A stretch of DNA of 64,000 nt from assembly GCA_021324155.1 (NCBI GenBank), contig JAJPJQ010000023.1, positions 1 through 64,000 of the forward strand. The letters run 5' to 3'. The notes under the pieces were generated by a model. It saw only the letters and a list, made by a program, of their open reading frames with translations, was not told where the DNA came from and searched no databases. Below are positions 30,937 to 38,366 of the stretch, piece after piece; within the stretch, counting starts at the first letter, position 1, and the number at the start of each line of letters is the position of its first letter. The stretch is from Pseudomonadota bacterium (lineage in GTDB: Bacteria > Desulfobacterota > Binatia > UBA9968). The position numbers were made by a program, and so were the translations under genes.

Positions 30937-31005
30937 AGGCGCGTAGCTTAATCAAGCAACAAGACCTGTCCCGTGAGCCGCAGTGTCCTAATTGCTGAAA
31001 CGCAA

Positions 31006-31175
31006 ATGGCTTCACGAACCGCTCAGAGGATTTGCAACGCACTTTGCTTCCTTGCCGTCGGTAATTTTCTGGCTTTCGCCATCGCTACAGCCGACTGCAC
31101 GCCCTCAGCCTTTTCGTCACATATCCATTGGCTATGTTCGCGGCTTTTTTGATTTGCCGCATGAAGTCAAGATGA
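31006..31175 (+). pseudogene. Decayed small membrane-protein gene (copy A)
   Basis: Starts ATG 31006 with MASRTAQRICNAL then a hydrophobic AVGNFLAFAIA, and resumes in another frame with YSRLHALSLFVTYPLAMF, ending at TGA 31173-31175. Compared with copy B (33227-33512) about 115 nt of the middle is missing, which breaks the frame. The stop overlaps the ATG at 31172 of the next gene as ATGA, so the ancestral pair was probably translationally coupled. The function of the family is unknown; two membrane helices are implied. Confidence 0.65.
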
Positions 31176-33037: not shown

Positions 33038-33168
33038 AGCTGCATCCTAGAGGAGCGCGCCCGCCTTAACAAACGGCGGGCCATGCATCCGGGACATGCT
33101 CGCGGGATGACGCAAAAACGGGGAAATGGTATTCTGGCGGAAGTTAAGAGGCTCTTATGGCGAAAAGC

Positions 33169-33206
33169 GTCGGCTTTCAAAATGTCAAGATTCAAGAGCC
33201 GACCCC
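33169..33206. repeat. REP-like hairpin, left side of the defence island
   Basis: Arms GTCGGCTTT (33169-33177) and AGAGCCGAC (33195-33203) pair with one mismatch. Read on the minus strand, 33206-33184 matches the right-hand element at 38340-38362 at about 20 of 23 positions, sharing TCTTGAAT and TTGACATTT. The element lies in opposite orientation to the right-hand copy. Elements of this look are often associated with REP-associated tyrosine transposases; no such gene is in the window. Confidence 0.6.
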
Positions 33207-33226
33207 GTGAGTCACCTATCAGATGC

Positions 33227-33512
33227 AAATAGCTCCTCGAACATTACAGAGGATTTGCAACGCAGTCTTGTTGCTTGCCGTCGTTAATTTCTGGCTTTCG
33301 CTATCATTTCCTCAATCCATGGAGGCGATGCGCTTACCGGGAAGATAGAGGACGGGCATCATTCTCTAAGGTACCGCGGCCAATATACCGAGGTCTCGGC
33401 GGCAGTTTTTCAGTACAGCCGACTCCACGCGCTCAGCCTTTTCATAACGTTTCCTCTGGGGATATTCGCGGCTTTTTTGATTTATCGGACGAGGTCAAGA
33501 TCCAAGACCTGA
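33227..33512 (+). pseudogene. Decayed small membrane-protein gene (copy B)
   Basis: Homologue of copy A. The initiation codon is ATA (33227 region, reading IAPRTLQRICNAVLLLAVV), and a one-base loss near 33290 relative to copy A shifts the frame. The remainder reads clearly from 33321 as GGDALTGKIEDGHHSLRYRG, QYTEVSAAVFQYSRLHALSL, then a membrane segment FITFPLGIFAAFLIY, to TGA at 33510-33512. The ancestral protein was about 95 aa with two membrane helices around a polar GKIEDGHH loop. The rest of the 33038-33759 stretch holds repeats and one doubtful small frame. Confidence 0.65.
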
Positions 33513-33759: not shown

Positions 33760-34749
33760 ATGTCGAAACGAAAGCAAGATACTGTTGTGAAGTCAGGGGC
33801 TTACAAGGATCCGTCGCGGGCTTCCCCGGCAACGAGGGCCGAGTCTCGATCAAGAAATCTCGATGAAGAATTAGAGTGGTGGGGTAACGCTTCGGTTTGG
33901 TCAAGTGTTTCGACATCGAGAACCCTGAAGGAGAAGGATGCTCTGCCAGTAAATAGTAAAGGCCCCAGGATTTCGTGGTTCACGAATTGGAAGCGAGACT
34001 TTTTATTAGGTGACGACGAGAAAGGGCATTTTGGAGCCTTTCCAGCTCTCGAAAAGCTCCACAAAAAAACCGTTTCCCTAGTTCCAATTCTCAGTGAGAT
34101 AGCCCAAACACGGGTGCTTCTCGAACCCTCAAAGGCACTCCGGCGCTCAATGGCATCCCGAAACGAGCGATGGGGTGATGCAGAAAAGTTGAGAAATGGC
34201 ACCGCCGAAGAAAGATGGCAGGTGCTTAACAAGTGGGCACCTATCCTGAGACATCACACCCCATCGGTCAAGATTACGATCGTGCAGAGCTGCAATAACG
34301 AATCAGAAAAGTTCGCTATTATTCAACGGTGGGATGTCACTCAAAAAAAATACAAACCTGATTTAGTTCTGCCCCCTAGAACTCGGCGTATCAAATATAT
34401 TCAGGCCAAGGCATATCCAGATCAACAGATTCTTAAGCAAATAGGTCAAGTCGATCCCGATCCAGAGGTTTTAGAATGGGTTGCAAAACGGTTGCTACAA
34501 ATAGGTGCAGCAAAAACGCACAGACCTTTAGAGTTTGAAATCTATAACTGCGCACTAAAAATTACCGAGTTAATCAAAAAGCAAATTGGTACTCCGTGCA
34601 ATCGAGAAACCGGCGAGTTACTACACGCTGCGTTTCCTGAATACTTTAGCCCGAAGGGCGATATTGCTAACGTGACAATGAAATTGATCCAAAGAGCAAG
34701 GGTTTGGAAGAGAACTTTTCAACGTGCTAGGAAATCTCGTAAAAGTTGA
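33760..34749 (+). CDS. Unrecognised 329-aa protein upstream of the Gabija-like pair
   Basis: I do not recognise this family. The N-terminus is charged and Ser/Arg-rich (about 1-40), then Trp-rich (ELEWWGNASVW, RISWFTNWKRDF). The C-terminal half is basic with RTRRIKYIQAKAYPDQQI and ends in Arg/Lys clusters (RARVWKRTFQRARKSRKS), suggesting nucleic-acid contact (inference). There are no membrane segments and no Walker motifs. GC and codon use are low, as in the two following genes. It ends 171 nt before the OLD gene and could be an accessory component or an independent passenger. Confidence 0.7.
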   Translation: MSKRKQDTVVKSGAYKDPSRASPATRAESRSRNLDEELEWWGNASVWSSVSTSRTLKEKDALPVNSKGPRISWFTNWKRDFLLGDDEKGHFGAFPALEKLHKKTVSLVPILSEIAQTRVLLEPSKALRRSMASRNERWGDAEKLRNGTAEERWQVLNKWAPILRHHTPSVKITIVQSCNNESEKFAIIQRWDVTQKKYKPDLVLPPRTRRIKYIQAKAYPDQQILKQIGQVDPDPEVLEWVAKRLLQIGAAKTHRPLEFEIYNCALKITELIKKQIGTPCNRETGELLHAAFPEYFSPKGDIANVTMKLIQRARVWKRTFQRARKSRKS

Positions 34750-34892: not shown

Positions 34893-34912
34893 ATACAAGG
34901 AGATACAAGGAG
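34893..34912 (+). promoter_or_regulatory. Tandemly duplicated Shine-Dalgarno of the OLD gene
   Basis: The 10-nt word ATACAAGGAG occurs twice in a row. The second copy places AAGGAG 8 nt before GTG 34921 and 5 nt before TTG 34918. The region 34750-34892 upstream has no gene; a weak extended -10 (TGCTAAATT, about 34873) is the only promoter-like signal I see. Confidence 0.5.
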
Positions 34913-34920
34913 AGGCATTG

Positions 34921-36732
34921 GTGAAAATCGCCCTGCTAACAATTGAAAACTTTCGAGGAATTCAATCGGGCAAAGTACAATTCCGAGACCATACAGTACT
35001 TGTTGGTCCGAATAACTGCGGGAAGACGACGGTTATCGAAGCCCTCGCTCTAATGCTAGGGCGAGATCGATTAATTAGAGACCTAACGGAACATGATTTT
35101 TTTGGCTCTAATCCACAACCCACAGATCGCATCCGATTTGTCGCAACAGTAACTGGATTTAGCTCCGAGGATTTCACTGAGCACAGCGATTGGTTCCGTG
35201 ACGGCCGTGGGGTGCCTGTCTGGTTTGATCCACAGGCTGCCGATGTAGTCTCTGAAAGGACTCGTGATCATCAAACATTGGCATGTCAAATTGCTTTTGC
35301 TGCGCGCTTCGATCGTGAAAGCCTCGAAGTTGAAACAGCTCGATACTTTTATGACAGCGACATAGACGTATTTGCGGAAGACAGCTTCCTTCCCGTCCCC
35401 GCTAAGCTAATCCGGGAGATCGGCCTATTTTTAATTCCTGCAAGCCGATCTTGGGATCGCATGCTCTCGTTCGGCTCGGAATTATTCCGACGTGTGATTC
35501 GCTCAGCAAGTGGGTTGCCGGCCGAAACAATCCTTGCGGAACGTGATCGCCTTCGGGAGCCAATAAATCGTCTCGAAGAAGATGAGCGGCTAAAACCCGT
35601 TGTCGATCAAGTGAATGCTGAAATCGTAAATCTACTCGGTGTTGAAAGCCCCGTGCGGCTTAGAATAACCGGGACAGACAGTGATAGCGTGATCGAATGT
35701 GTAACACCGCATTTCGCAACAGCAAGCACCAGAGTTGTACCCTCAAAACGCCAGGGAAGTGGAATGCTTTCCCTGCAAAGCCTTTTTCTACTTCTTCATT
35801 TTGGACAAAAGCGCATTGAGGCTGGAGAGAGCTTTTGTATGACTCTGGAAGAACCTGAGCTTCATTTGCCACCAATGATCCAGCGTCGAGTTCTTTCGCG
35901 CCTCAGGTCGTTATCTACACAAACAATCATCACTACTCATTCTCCGCTTGTGGCTGCTTTTTGCGATGCTACCTCACTGCTAATTCTACGAAATGAAAAT
36001 GGCAGATTATTAGCAAAGCCAATGCTCGAACGGCCGCTTGAGCAACGTGCAACAAATAGCTTGCGTAAGCTATTCCAGATCAACCGAATCGAGACCGTAA
36101 GCGCAATGATGAACGAGTATGTTCTAGTTCCGGAGGGTAAGTCTGATTTCGACTGGCTAAATCTCTTGGTGCGGGCTGTCGAGCTTGAACGGCAACCGAC
36201 TAATGCCTGTTTATTCGGTGTTCAGGTGGGAGTAGTCCCTACACATGATGCTAAGATAAAGGAAGCGTGCGAGGTCCTGAGCAAATCGCACCAGCAAATC
36301 ATGGCGTTGGTGGATGGCGATGCAAATGGTCGGCATTATGTTCGCGACCTTCGCAATCCAAACGTAGGGGTTCGTAGAATATTGCGGTGGCCGAACGACT
36401 GGACCATCGAAGATGTCATTGCATGGATAATAGAAGCCGATGATGCGGTGGCTATGGAGCGAATTAACAGTGATCTTGCCACGTCTCCCGGTGATCGCAA
36501 TACACTGCTCGCTCGCCTAAAGACAAATGATCACGCACAGCATGGAATGAAGGGTGATTTTGTAGCCCATGAAATTATAGCGAATGCTTTGGCTGATAGT
36601 CCAATCTGTATTCAGCGTACAAGTATCGTTCTGCAAGCCATCGCACAGGTTTGTGCTGGCGTAGCGACTGAGCATTTTGAACAGGTTGAAGCGGGTGAAG
36701 TACCCATATTCATTTTTAAACCATGCCCATAA
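34921..36732 (+). CDS. OLD-family ATP-dependent nuclease (GajA-like)
   Basis: A 603-aa overcoming-lysogenization-defect protein. The N-terminal ABC-type ATPase has KIALLTIENFRGI, Walker A GPNNCGKTT (29-37), a signature-like RQGSGMLSLQSL (278-289), Walker B with Glu310/Glu311 in CMTLEEPELHL, and His340 in IITTHSP. The C-terminal TOPRIM domain has Glu405 in VPEGKSD, Asp465/Asp467 in LVDGD and Lys544 in MKGDFVAHEI. With the overlapping UvrD-like helicase it forms the class 2 OLD arrangement known as Gabija, where the A subunit nicks or cuts phage DNA when nucleotide is depleted. GTG 34921 is preferred; TTG 34918 is possible. Confidence 0.88.
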   Translation: MKIALLTIENFRGIQSGKVQFRDHTVLVGPNNCGKTTVIEALALMLGRDRLIRDLTEHDFFGSNPQPTDRIRFVATVTGFSSEDFTEHSDWFRDGRGVPVWFDPQAADVVSERTRDHQTLACQIAFAARFDRESLEVETARYFYDSDIDVFAEDSFLPVPAKLIREIGLFLIPASRSWDRMLSFGSELFRRVIRSASGLPAETILAERDRLREPINRLEEDERLKPVVDQVNAEIVNLLGVESPVRLRITGTDSDSVIECVTPHFATASTRVVPSKRQGSGMLSLQSLFLLLHFGQKRIEAGESFCMTLEEPELHLPPMIQRRVLSRLRSLSTQTIITTHSPLVAAFCDATSLLILRNENGRLLAKPMLERPLEQRATNSLRKLFQINRIETVSAMMNEYVLVPEGKSDFDWLNLLVRAVELERQPTNACLFGVQVGVVPTHDAKIKEACEVLSKSHQQIMALVDGDANGRHYVRDLRNPNVGVRRILRWPNDWTIEDVIAWIIEADDAVAMERINSDLATSPGDRNTLLARLKTNDHAQHGMKGDFVAHEIIANALADSPICIQRTSIVLQAIAQVCAGVATEHFEQVEAGEVPIFIFKPCP

Positions 36733-37994
36733 CTGCGTTTGAGGGACCAGCGGGCACTGGAAAAACGTACAACCTTATCGCTGAACTCTGTGTAAGGTTG
36801 CGTAACAGAGCCTTAGCCTCGCATGAAAGAGTATTGGCTTTAACTTTCATGCACGGTGCCCGCCGGCGGCTAGATCAGCAACTGCGTCAAATCCGAGAAT
36901 TAGATTGCCGATTTCAAGCTGTCACTCTCGATAGTTTTGCGTGGAAATTAGTACAAAGATGGCGGCGTCTGGCTTCGTCACTTGGTTATGCGCTTCCTGC
37001 AGAGGAAAATTACGACGATACATGTGCACTTGCGGCCAAACTTATGGCGAGACCCACTATTAAGTCATGGATTCGGCTCTCCTATCCCATACTGGTCGTT
37101 GATGAGGCGCAAGACCTAAGTTTCGAAAGGTCTGCTATGATCTCCGCTGCAACTGACAGCTGTCACGTCTTATTAGCTTTTGATGAGTTCCAATGTCTAG
37201 ATCCAGGTCTTCGTCCGATGGCAATTCACAGTTGGCTCACTAATCTCTGTACACCTACAAGCCTGACGCAATGTCGCCGTACAGACGTAAATGAACTTCT
37301 GGAAGCTGCACATGCAATCCGGAATGGCCAGGCGATTAGGCACGACGGCTCTCGTTTCAAGGTAGCCATCACACCAAGTACAGTTCTAGCTGCAACTTAT
37401 TTGGCAAATGCAATTTCATGGCGCGGTGGGGGAACTCTTGCAGTACTAACCCCTTCGCGGGCCGGTGGATTCGTAAATGAAGTTATCAGCATGGTTCAAC
37501 GTCAACCGCTCGGACGACAGAGAAGCGGTCCTTATCCGATTCAGTGGGAAGGTAGCGATGAGAGTGACCACAGGGAAATATGTGGTGCTTTACGAATTCC
37601 AGAACGTTGCACGGTAGCCGAGGCAATTGCACACCTCGATCAGCACATGAATACTCCGGTCGTCAAAGCACTTAAAGAATGGGTGATAAGGCAAAGACGG
37701 GTTTTAGGACTTGAGGAGATATCTGTCGATCAGATTCATCGATTTCTCAAGCGGTCGTTCACCGCACGGCGTCGTCACGCGGGAAACAGGCAGTCACAGT
37801 TATTGGCAATGACTATCCAACAGGCTAAAAATCGCGAATTCGACCATGTAGTCGTGATCTGGCCATACACAGTGCCGAATGATAACGAGCAGAAGCGACG
37901 ATTACTTTACAACGCACTTACGCGTGCACAACAGAGCTGCTTGGTCCTTGTACAAGCGCAACGATTGCTTAATCAACCGCCTTTCTCATCCTAA
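36723..37994 (+). CDS. UvrD-like superfamily 1 helicase (GajB-like)
   Basis: A compact 423-aa SF1A helicase whose ATG overlaps the OLD gene by 10 nt. Motif I GPAGTGKT (8-15), Ia LTFMHGARRRL, II VVDEAQD (125-131), III-like FDEFQCLD, IV-like TQCRRT, V MTIQQAKNREFDHVVVIW and VI LLYNALTRAQ are visible. It lacks the long 1B/2B insertions of full UvrD and is shorter than described GajB proteins (about 490 aa). In Gabija the helicase binds the GajA ring and is thought to sense or process DNA ends. GC is low and codon use differs from the flanks. Confidence 0.85.
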   Translation: MPITAFEGPAGTGKTYNLIAELCVRLRNRALASHERVLALTFMHGARRRLDQQLRQIRELDCRFQAVTLDSFAWKLVQRWRRLASSLGYALPAEENYDDTCALAAKLMARPTIKSWIRLSYPILVVDEAQDLSFERSAMISAATDSCHVLLAFDEFQCLDPGLRPMAIHSWLTNLCTPTSLTQCRRTDVNELLEAAHAIRNGQAIRHDGSRFKVAITPSTVLAATYLANAISWRGGGTLAVLTPSRAGGFVNEVISMVQRQPLGRQRSGPYPIQWEGSDESDHREICGALRIPERCTVAEAIAHLDQHMNTPVVKALKEWVIRQRRVLGLEEISVDQIHRFLKRSFTARRRHAGNRQSQLLAMTIQQAKNREFDHVVVIWPYTVPNDNEQKRRLLYNALTRAQQSCLVLVQAQRLLNQPPFSS

Positions 37995-38282: not shown

Positions 38283-38366
38283 GGGATCAGGTTTTCTATT
38301 CTCGACAATCTTCCCGCGCCACCCTCTGCAAGTGGCCTTGGGGTCAGGTCTTGAATTTTGACATTT
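38283..38366 (+). repeat. Right inverted repeat of the defence island
   Basis: Partner of 33490-33562 in opposite orientation (26 of 33 matches in the outer block, 17 of 19 in the inner block). Between the blocks this copy carries about 14 extra nt. It marks the right edge of the low-GC DNA; sequence beyond 38400 becomes GC-rich again. Confidence 0.7.

What the first reader, a model, noticed from the sequence alone, without database searches (positions are those of the whole stretch)
34921..37994. Gabija-type (class 2 OLD) anti-phage pair in a low-GC island
An OLD ATPase-TOPRIM nuclease overlaps by 10 nt a compact UvrD-like helicase. This gene order and overlap is that of Gabija. The helicase is shorter (423 aa) than described GajB proteins, and motif III/IV are unusual (FDEFQCLD, TQCRRT), so it may be a distinct subtype. 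GC and codon use differ sharply from the flanks.
Basis: partly seen in the sequence, partly recalled or inferred. Interest (0 to 1): 0.7.

Follow-up and report, generated by a model that had tools for sequence, protein, structure and literature searches.

The report
Gabija-type defence pair with mini-helicase
Two overlapping genes encode a probable DNA-cutting enzyme and a trimmed-down helicase that together look like a widespread, little-noticed branch of the known bacterial anti-phage system Gabija, apparently acquired here from another bacterium.

Summary
Window 34921-36732 (+) encodes a 603-aa OLD ABC-ATPase/TOPRIM protein and 36723-37994 (+) a 423-aa UvrD-like helicase, overlapping by 10 nt, with GC3 (0.43) far below the window's other long ORFs (0.77 +/- 0.06). 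Profile searches, fold search of the nuclease and trees agree on a Gabija (class 2 OLD) pair. The short helicase is no private oddity: a profile scan found 104 relatives; in 75 of the 80 loci kept, the OLD gene lies directly upstream, overlapping in 74. Record titles span about 11 phyla; 18 plasmids carry it; none of 394 other sampled genomes of the window's own phylum does. Both proteins form one clade, next to the same Gabija subgroup; with PcrA/UvrD as outgroup the helicase nests inside GajB. Against 13 other GajBs it has about 75 residues fewer around subdomain 1B and 70 fewer around 2B, no N-terminal Q-motif segment, and KN for KG in motif V. I call it a compact-GajB variant of Gabija: a new variant of a known kind. 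Anti-phage activity is inferred, not shown.

The parts
34921..36732 (+). GajA-like class 2 OLD protein (603 aa): ABC ATPase plus C-terminal TOPRIM nuclease
36723..37994 (+). Compact GajB-like SF1A helicase (423 aa)
36723..36732 (+). 10-nt overlap of the two reading frames; in the 75 paired relatives the overlap is 4, 10, 11 or 20 nt, with a 2-nt gap in one
34907..34915 (+). Likely ribosome-binding site AAGGAGAGG, 5 nt before GTG 34921
   Evidence: read from the sequence; role inferred
35005..35031 (+). GajA Walker A (GPNNCGKTT, residues 29-37)
   Evidence: G29 and K35 in 81 of 81
36130..36147 (+). TOPRIM motif PEGKSD (E405 = BpOLD E400 / GajA E379; D409 at the BpOLD E404 position)
   Evidence: equivalences by motif and spacing
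36313..36321 (+). TOPRIM DGD (D465, D467 = GajA D432, D434)
   Evidence: 81 of 81
36403..36411 (+). T495-I-E497, at the likely position of the BpOLD metal-B ligands T506/E508
   Evidence: E497 in 81 of 81, T495 in 35 of 81
36744..36767 (+). Helicase Walker A (GPAGTGKT); 7 residues precede it, and only one more codon of the frame is open upstream, without a start
37101..37115 (+). Helicase motif II (DEAQD)
37182..37199 (+). Helicase motif III, family form DEFQCL
37272..37283 (+). Helicase motif IV, CRRT (R186 in 82 of 82)
37824..37838 (+). Helicase motif V, AKNRE (KG in place of KN in 13 of 13 other GajBs)
37908..37925 (+). Helicase motif VI, YNALTR

Best explanation
A two-gene Gabija-type (class 2 OLD) defence system with a compact GajB, acquired by horizontal transfer. 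Proposed working: the OLD proteins assemble through their ATPase domains into a nuclease scaffold kept quiet by bound nucleotide (published for VD045 GajA, inferred here). The small helicase docks on it and uses ATP to follow or sense exposed DNA ends or single strands of an entering genome that are not protected by RecBCD-type enzymes. This licenses the two-metal TOPRIM centre to nick or cut that DNA before it circularises and replicates. Shown here: the gene pair, its conserved overlap and joint descent, and the ATPase, nuclease and helicase motifs. Inferred: complex formation, DNA-end sensing, cutting, phage protection. Because the regions of subdomains 1B and 2B are reduced and the Q-motif segment is missing, I expect a translocase or sensor rather than a processive unwinding helicase.
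For: PADLOC: all 59 OLD proteins of A4 match GajA PDLC00086 and all 62 helicases of A3 match GajB PDLC04173 at E <= 1e-5 (A3 and A4 hold 61 and 58 of the 80 loci plus the window). Foldseek: GajA chains are ranks 1-4 for the OLD protein; VIA-align 2 lists 8x5i_D with Z 17.3, rmsd 7.3, 448 aligned, residues 1-584. E405, D465, D467, E497 in 81 of 81 and G437 in 80 of 81; helicase K14, D127, E128, Q130, Q157, R186, R401 in 82 of 82. Pairing: 75 of 80 loci. One clade for each protein with 100% SH-aLRT, next to the same PDLC00086 pairs in both genes (99; 99/96; 96). With one and the same family profile the three GajB partners of PDLC00086 score highest (65-74 bits), above ten PcrA/UvrD proteins (33-63) (outgroup identity checked). 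AU test rejects the other GajBs as a group without the short ones (p 0.0021). Pairwise distances of the two proteins correlate, r = 0.95 over 62 representatives (no control for shared descent).
Against: No functional data. PADLOC scores (176 and 75 bits) are far below those of three full-length members of the same GajA model (721-882 bits), and a GajB model hits all 19 of 19 genomes tested at E <= 1e-10 and 11 of 14 control genomes, so the GajB label alone is weak. The fold matches of the OLD protein are loose: TM-score 0.47-0.49, rmsd 14-15 for the best GajA chains, and VIA-align 2 ranks SMC/Rad50 heads higher (Z 20.6) through the ATPase domain. The helicase model resembles UvrD (Foldseek rank 1; VIA Z 29.0) more than GajB (Foldseek ranks 32, 39, 43). 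By the same profile the other twelve GajBs score 36-52, below most of the PcrA/UvrD proteins. The BpOLD E404 position is D in 75 of 81 and T506 is kept in only 35 of 81, although both were reported as absolutely conserved in class 2. Branches leading to the short clade are long (1.96-2.34), so long-branch attraction is not excluded, and the group for the AU test was named after the tree was seen. No control set was run for the neighbours.
Confidence: 0.8

Rival explanations
1. A separate OLD-plus-helicase defence system, not Gabija by descent: an OLD gene paired independently with a UvrD-type helicase that was secondarily shortened.
For: Structure closest to UvrD; the family profile scores nine of ten PcrA/UvrD proteins (50-63 bits) about as high as or higher than the twelve GajBs outside the PDLC00086 group (36-52).
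Against: The same profile puts the three PDLC00086 partners first (65-74 bits); rooted trees place the helicase inside GajB, AU p 0.0021 for the alternative; the OLD tree gives the same neighbouring group.
Confidence: 0.13
2. A DNA-repair or plasmid-maintenance pair rather than an anti-phage system, acting on broken or unprotected DNA ends of mobile elements.
For: 18 plasmid records, with recombination or transfer genes near several of the 12 fetched, and among 127 neighbours in genomes; Schiltz et al. 2019 speculated on repair or replication for class 2 OLD (PMC6755086, passages).
Against: Both proteins match defence families, spread is patchy across phyla, defence genes lie nearby in some loci (no control); the class 2 pairs described in the passages seen (VD045, PA14) defend against phage.
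Confidence: 0.1
3. A decaying or inactive island remnant in this genome.
For: Alien composition; broken copies exist in relatives (L009, L013, L093, L096).
Against: Both frames are full length in the window with the catalytic motifs intact.
Confidence: 0.05

Closest known systems
Gabija of Bacillus cereus VD045 (GajA/GajB)
   Same: Gene order, OLD ATPase-TOPRIM with the same key residues (E379, G409, D432, D434), SF1A partner with DExQ motif (PMC10781630 passages)
   Different: Partner 423 aa against 494; 57 residues between motifs Ic and II, less than the 83 of VD045's Nacc (1B) subdomain alone (residues 73-155). VD045 GajB was not aligned here, so its Q-motif segment, motif V and 2B were not compared
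PADLOC PDLC00086-type GajA with its helicase (loci L140-L142)
   Same: Nearest group in both the OLD and the helicase tree and best helicase scores
   Different: Helicase frames of 571-603 codons; the OLD protein of the window scores 176 bits where three full-length members score 721-882
Class 2 OLD BpOLD/XccOLD
   Same: Tandem, often overlapping UvrD/PcrA/Rep-like gene; TOPRIM site with E, DxD and a helical-domain Glu (passages)
   Different: D for E404 in 75 of 81; T506 kept in 35 of 81
Class 1 OLD (T. scotoductus 6p74, P2 Old)
   Same: Same two-domain architecture
   Different: Class 1 stands alone; here the helicase partner is nearly always present
Retron-Eco8 and Septu PtuA ATPases
   Same: Related ABC ATPase domain
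   Different: No reverse transcriptase or HNH partner among the genes scanned beside the pair

Membership tests
Gabija (GajAB) / class 2 OLD | First protein is an OLD ABC ATPase plus TOPRIM | tested here: met
Gabija (GajAB) / class 2 OLD | TOPRIM Glu, Gly and DxD (GajA E379, G409, D432, D434) | tested here: met
   E405, G437, D465, D467; 81, 80, 81, 81 of 81; equivalence by motif and spacing
Gabija (GajAB) / class 2 OLD | Metal-B ligands Glu, Thr and Glu (BpOLD E404, T506, E508), reported as conserved rather than used to define the class | tested here: inconclusive
   E497 in 81 of 81; position 409 acidic in 81 of 81 but Glu in only 6; T495 in 35 of 81, present in the window
Gabija (GajAB) / class 2 OLD | Tandem UvrD/PcrA/Rep-like helicase directly downstream | tested here: met
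   75 of 80 genome loci; 10 of the 12 plasmid loci fetched (of 18 plasmid records) intact
Gabija (GajAB) / class 2 OLD | Helicase belongs to the GajB clade | tested here: met
   Nested in GajB with PcrA/UvrD outgroup, 99/96; AU p 0.0021; best profile scores to PDLC00086 partners. Long-branch caveat; VD045 GajB itself was not in the tree
Gabija (GajAB) / class 2 OLD | Recognised by curated GajA and GajB models | tested here: inconclusive
   Best models are GajA and GajB, but at low scores; PADLOC's own thresholds are not shown and a GajB model is unspecific
Gabija (GajAB) / class 2 OLD | Four-subdomain helicase (1A, 1B, 2A, 2B) | tested here: inconclusive
   AlphaFold2 pLDDT 93.7 and alignment to UvrD over 1-423; insert regions for 1B and 2B present but reduced; model not inspected in 3D
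Gabija (GajAB) / class 2 OLD | GajA4:GajB4 octamer | not testable with these tools
   No complex prediction available
Gabija (GajAB) / class 2 OLD | Anti-phage activity needing both genes | not testable with these tools
   Needs a bench test
Retron class 3 OLD | Reverse transcriptase beside the OLD gene (the ncRNA was not searched for) | tested here: not met
   None among the 11 window ORFs scanned with Pfam between 30992 and 43168; RVT_1 in 2 of 127 neighbours of relatives

The most novel reading that the evidence does not exclude
A minimal Gabija: the clade has trimmed the helicase's 1B region by more than half and its 2B region by about a third relative to other GajBs, and lost the Q-motif segment. 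In VD045 the 1B subdomain takes part in the GajA-GajB contact and probably in the GajB-GajB contact. So the compact system assembles differently (for instance an OLD tetramer with monomeric motors that do not pair) and is licensed by sensing of DNA ends or single strands without unwinding. It would be close to the natural core of what Gabija needs.
Probability: 0.35. Interest if true: 0.55.

Novelty: new variant of a known kind. Interest (0 to 1): 0.42.

Why it matters
Whether GajB is a working helicase is disputed for VD045 (passages). A whole clade that keeps its ATPase motifs while trimming the accessory subdomains makes the question testable: if it still protects, full-size 1B and 2B are not what Gabija needs. 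It also shows that present GajA/GajB models score a widely spread branch only at their edge, and that a GajB model alone does not tell GajB from PcrA/UvrD.

Tried and rejected
Third component: I do not count the gene upstream (P0003, 33760-34749) as part of the system. It has no Pfam, NCBIfam, PADLOC or PHROG match and no relative was found in 72,556 plasmid records, in 394 other genomes of the phylum or in viral contigs (a single-sequence query reaches close relatives only). Neighbours of relatives show no widely shared family (most frequent: 3 of 127).

Phage-borne origin: no helicase relative in viral contigs or in phage records. The OLD profile gave 9 viral loci, all far weaker; L159 has a 635-codon GajB-like frame beside the OLD-like one.

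Exact island borders: the left gene P0004 has close orthologues in five genomes of the same family, but DNA similarity stops at 33057-33067 in all five stretches fetched and no other part of window 25001-50000 matched them (DNA only, 1.4 kb or more available on that side), so no empty site was found. Promoter and terminator scans gave no more than shuffles.

Redbeta/RecT likeness of OLD residues 153-203 (E 0.03 in PDB; 0.003 in PHROGs) was not listed by the 11-sequence family profile at E <= 0.001; treated as chance.

GajB is not among the 50 VIA-align 2 rows shown for the helicase, which is no evidence of difference.

A first comparison of PcrA/UvrD and GajB scores mixed two profiles; one search repeats it with one profile and replaces it. 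The '7 residues before Walker A' depends on start codons chosen nearest to the profile's first position; one search tests this. In the window only one codon is open upstream; of 82 members, 41 have no upstream start codon in frame and 46 have a stop within 25 codons upstream, so a full Q-motif segment is impossible in those 46 and not excluded by this test in the other 36; no conserved Q is seen in the upstream translations.

Rows left out: L129 in all trees (helicase start unclear); L126 and L132 also as near-copies; 32 of 81 OLD proteins and 32 of 82 helicases were used helicases in 113 and 114. The 81/82 sets leave out seven loci as broken or truncated (L009, L013, L031, L046, L057, L089, L094), besides those without an intact frame (L045 for the OLD protein, L072, L078, L093, L096).

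Literature: six phrases such as 'Gabija-like', 'Gabija subtype', 'short GajB' gave 0 papers. In the listings I saw no title or abstract start that describes a compact-GajB clade; subscription papers are mostly not held. So 'not described' means not found in these searches.
Full report
1. What is there. Two + strand genes overlap by 10 nt: an OLD-type protein of 603 aa (34921-36732, GTG start with AAGGAGAGG 5 nt upstream) and a UvrD-like helicase of 423 aa (36723-37994). GC3 is 0.425 and 0.428 against 0.768 (sd 0.059) for 31 other ORFs of at least 250 aa in the window. The upstream orphan P0003 shares the low GC (GC3 0.444). In 72 relatives' loci the pair does not differ from its flanks in GC (mean difference -0.004, lower in 39 of 72), so the contrast speaks of arrival in this genome from elsewhere, not of the system.

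2. What the proteins are. Pfam: AAA_15 and UvrD_C_2/UvrD-helicase above cut-off. PADLOC's best models are GajA (PDLC00086, 176 bits) and GajB (PDLC04173, 75 bits). Three full-length members of PDLC00086 score 721-882 bits, so the protein lies at the edge of that model. The GajB score alone means little: a GajB model matched all 19 of 19 genomes tested at E <= 1e-10 and 11 of 14 control genomes, and the ten such proteins looked at are PcrA/UvrD-type. AlphaFold2 models (built with relatives from the scan) are good: helicase pLDDT 93.7; OLD protein 85.8, with weak stretches at 176-204, 251-261 and 276-278. Foldseek puts the OLD protein nearest to Gabija GajA (8u7i, 8sm3, 8x5i; TM-score 0.47-0.49, rmsd 14-15), then OLD 6p74; VIA-align 2 ranks SMC/Rad50 heads first through the ATPase domain (Z 20.6) and lists 8x5i_D at Z 17.3 (rmsd 7.3, 448 aligned) across 1-584. 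The helicase is nearest to UvrD (Foldseek rank 1; VIA 2is6_B Z 29.0, rmsd 4.3, 370 aligned); GajB is at Foldseek ranks 32, 39 and 43.

3. Active sites. Against GajA and BpOLD (passages of PMC10781630 and PMC6755086), matched by motif and spacing, the OLD family keeps E405, D465, D467 and E497 in 81 of 81 and G437 in 80 of 81. The BpOLD E404 position is D in 75 of 81 and E in 6; the T506 position is T in 35 of 81, M in 31, and T in the window. Walker A (G29, K35), signature (G279, G281) and Walker B (E310, E311) residues are kept in 81 of 81, H340 in 80. The helicase keeps Walker A G13-K14-T15, DE-Q, motif III Q, motif IV R and motif VI R in 82 of 82. Motif names are recalled.

4. What sets the helicase apart. 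Compared with 13 other GajBs, the distance from motif Ic to motif II (region of subdomain 1B) has a median of 57 residues against 132, and from the P244 motif to motif V (region of 2B) 124 against 195; the other spacings differ by at most 13 in the medians (16 family members). Walker A comes after 7 residues in 81 of 82 members, 8 in one, with starts chosen nearest to the profile's first position. In the window only one further codon is open; of the 82, 41 have no upstream start codon in frame and 46 have a stop within 25 codons upstream. The other 13 GajBs carry a further N-terminal segment, with the Q-motif glutamine in 11 of 13; L141 and L142, in the nearest group, have the segment without the Q. 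Motif V reads KNR(E/Q), where 13 of 13 others have KG (KN in 82 of 82, E372 in 69). Motif III has F before the conserved Q in 79 of 82 and C after it in 68, which none of the 13 shows. The scan's own patterns included AKNR and DEFQCL, so these counts are biased upward, but the 11 sequences of A1, ten of them found by plain tblastn, agree. In VD045 the GajA-GajB contact uses GajB 1A and 1B, and the GajB-GajB contact helix alpha-5 (PMC10822852 passages); alpha-4 to alpha-8 form the Nacc (1B) subdomain in PMC10681800 (passages; helix numbering may differ between the papers). The most reduced region is thus the one that helps to build the VD045 ring.

5. Distribution and pairing. tblastn found 18 of 72,556 plasmid records, 17 covering at least 80% of the query. 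The profile scan of genome contigs found 104 relatives; 80 loci were kept. In 75 of 80 the OLD gene is directly upstream: overlap 4 nt in 59, 20 nt in 11, 11 nt in 3, 10 nt in 1, and a 2-nt gap in 1 (three of these OLD genes are cut by a contig end, one is split between frames, and one helicase is frame-shifted). Of the other five, L072 and L078 lie at contig ends, L045 has an OLD fragment upstream, and L093 and L096 are broken copies without it. Of the 12 plasmid loci fetched (of 18), 10 are intact pairs, L009 and L013 are broken. Record titles point to about 11 phyla (Pseudomonadota, Acidobacteriota, Verrucomicrobiota, Lentisphaerota, Myxococcota, Planctomycetota, Chloroflexota, Bacteroidota, Gemmatimonadota, Thermodesulfobacteriota, Fermentibacterota; some placements recalled; many are MAGs). 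In the window's own phylum none of 394 other sampled genomes has the helicase at E <= 1e-8 or the OLD protein at E <= 1e-30. No helicase relative was found in viral contigs or phage records.

6. Descent. In quick trees each protein forms one clade against 13 other Gabija pairs with 100% SH-aLRT. The midpoint-rooted OLD tree puts the PDLC00086 group next to it (99). With ten PcrA/UvrD proteins (identity checked) as outgroup, the helicase clade lies inside GajB, next to the partners of the same PDLC00086 proteins (99/96; 96 on conserved columns only). The AU test rejects the other GajBs as a clade without it (p 0.0021; the group was named after the tree was seen). A family profile scores the three PDLC00086 partners highest (65-74 bits), ten PcrA/UvrD proteins at 33-63 and the other twelve GajBs at 36-52. 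Distances of the two proteins correlate with r = 0.95 over 62 representatives, without a control for shared descent. Long branches (1.96-2.34) keep attraction possible. VD045 GajB itself was not in the trees.

7. Surroundings. Neighbours are mixed. Among 127 flanking ORFs from the 75 paired loci (selected automatically, 150-900 aa, at most one on each side) Pfam finds TatD DNases 3 (the same number match PADLOC QatD), phage integrase 3, AbiEii 2, reverse transcriptase 2, resolvase 2, Shedu SduA 2 (25 families shown of 105 and of 247). Annotated plasmid loci show DUF4297, NERD, Z1, PD-(D/E)XK, VapBC, integrases and recombinases. No control set was run, so I claim no enrichment. In the window, the genes around the low-GC stretch that Pfam names (APH-like kinase, HD domain, cupin, PNPOx, permease) look unrelated to defence.

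8. Working model and its limits. Published Gabija work gives three ideas: nucleotide-gated nicking, GajB (d)ATPase activity without unwinding (PMC10568477 passages), and attack on linear DNA free of RecBCD (PMC12407980 abstract, discussion section and passages). The clade keeps the residues the nuclease and the ATPases need and trims the helicase's accessory regions, so the mechanism I think most likely is end or ssDNA sensing by the compact motor that licenses cutting by the OLD nuclease. The gene anatomy is shown; the mechanism is inferred.

9. Verdict. Gabija-type pair confirmed, of a compact-GajB clade that I did not find described in the searches. New variant of a known kind. The checks mended several statements; none called for a change of odds.

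Noticed in passing
33180-33206 (-) and 38340-38366 (+): A 27-nt, 89% complementary inverted repeat with GGGGTCAGGTCTTGAA brackets the low-GC stretch. The 16-mer (up to 2 mismatches) occurs 15 times in the genome against 0 for the reversed control: a dispersed repeat, perhaps REP-like (recalled).
   Followed up: partly
33760-34749 (+): Low-GC orphan ORF of 329 aa (P0003) with no family match and no relative found.
   Followed up: yes
31002-31173 and 33225-33501: Blocks of 66 and 88 nt repeated at 80% and 82% identity, 2.2-2.3 kb apart, on either side of the APH-like kinase gene.
   Followed up: no
L011:7578-9425: A second, different OLD-like ATPase frame (37 bits to the family profile) lies just behind the pair on Aminobacter plasmid pAM01.
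   Followed up: no
L159:4986-8436: A viral contig (IMG/VR) carries an OLD-like frame whose end overlaps a 635-codon GajB-like frame (stop to stop), a likely Gabija-type pair outside the compact clade.
   Followed up: partly
L009, L013, L093, L096: Broken copies of the helicase or the pair on plasmids and in genomes, suggesting loss after transfer.
   Followed up: no
genomes G395-G413: PADLOC GajB model PDLC00104 matches every one of 19 genomes (best hit 49-125 bits) and 11 of 14 control genomes; ten of the hits are PcrA/UvrD-type: a warning for GajB calls made without GajA.
   Followed up: partly
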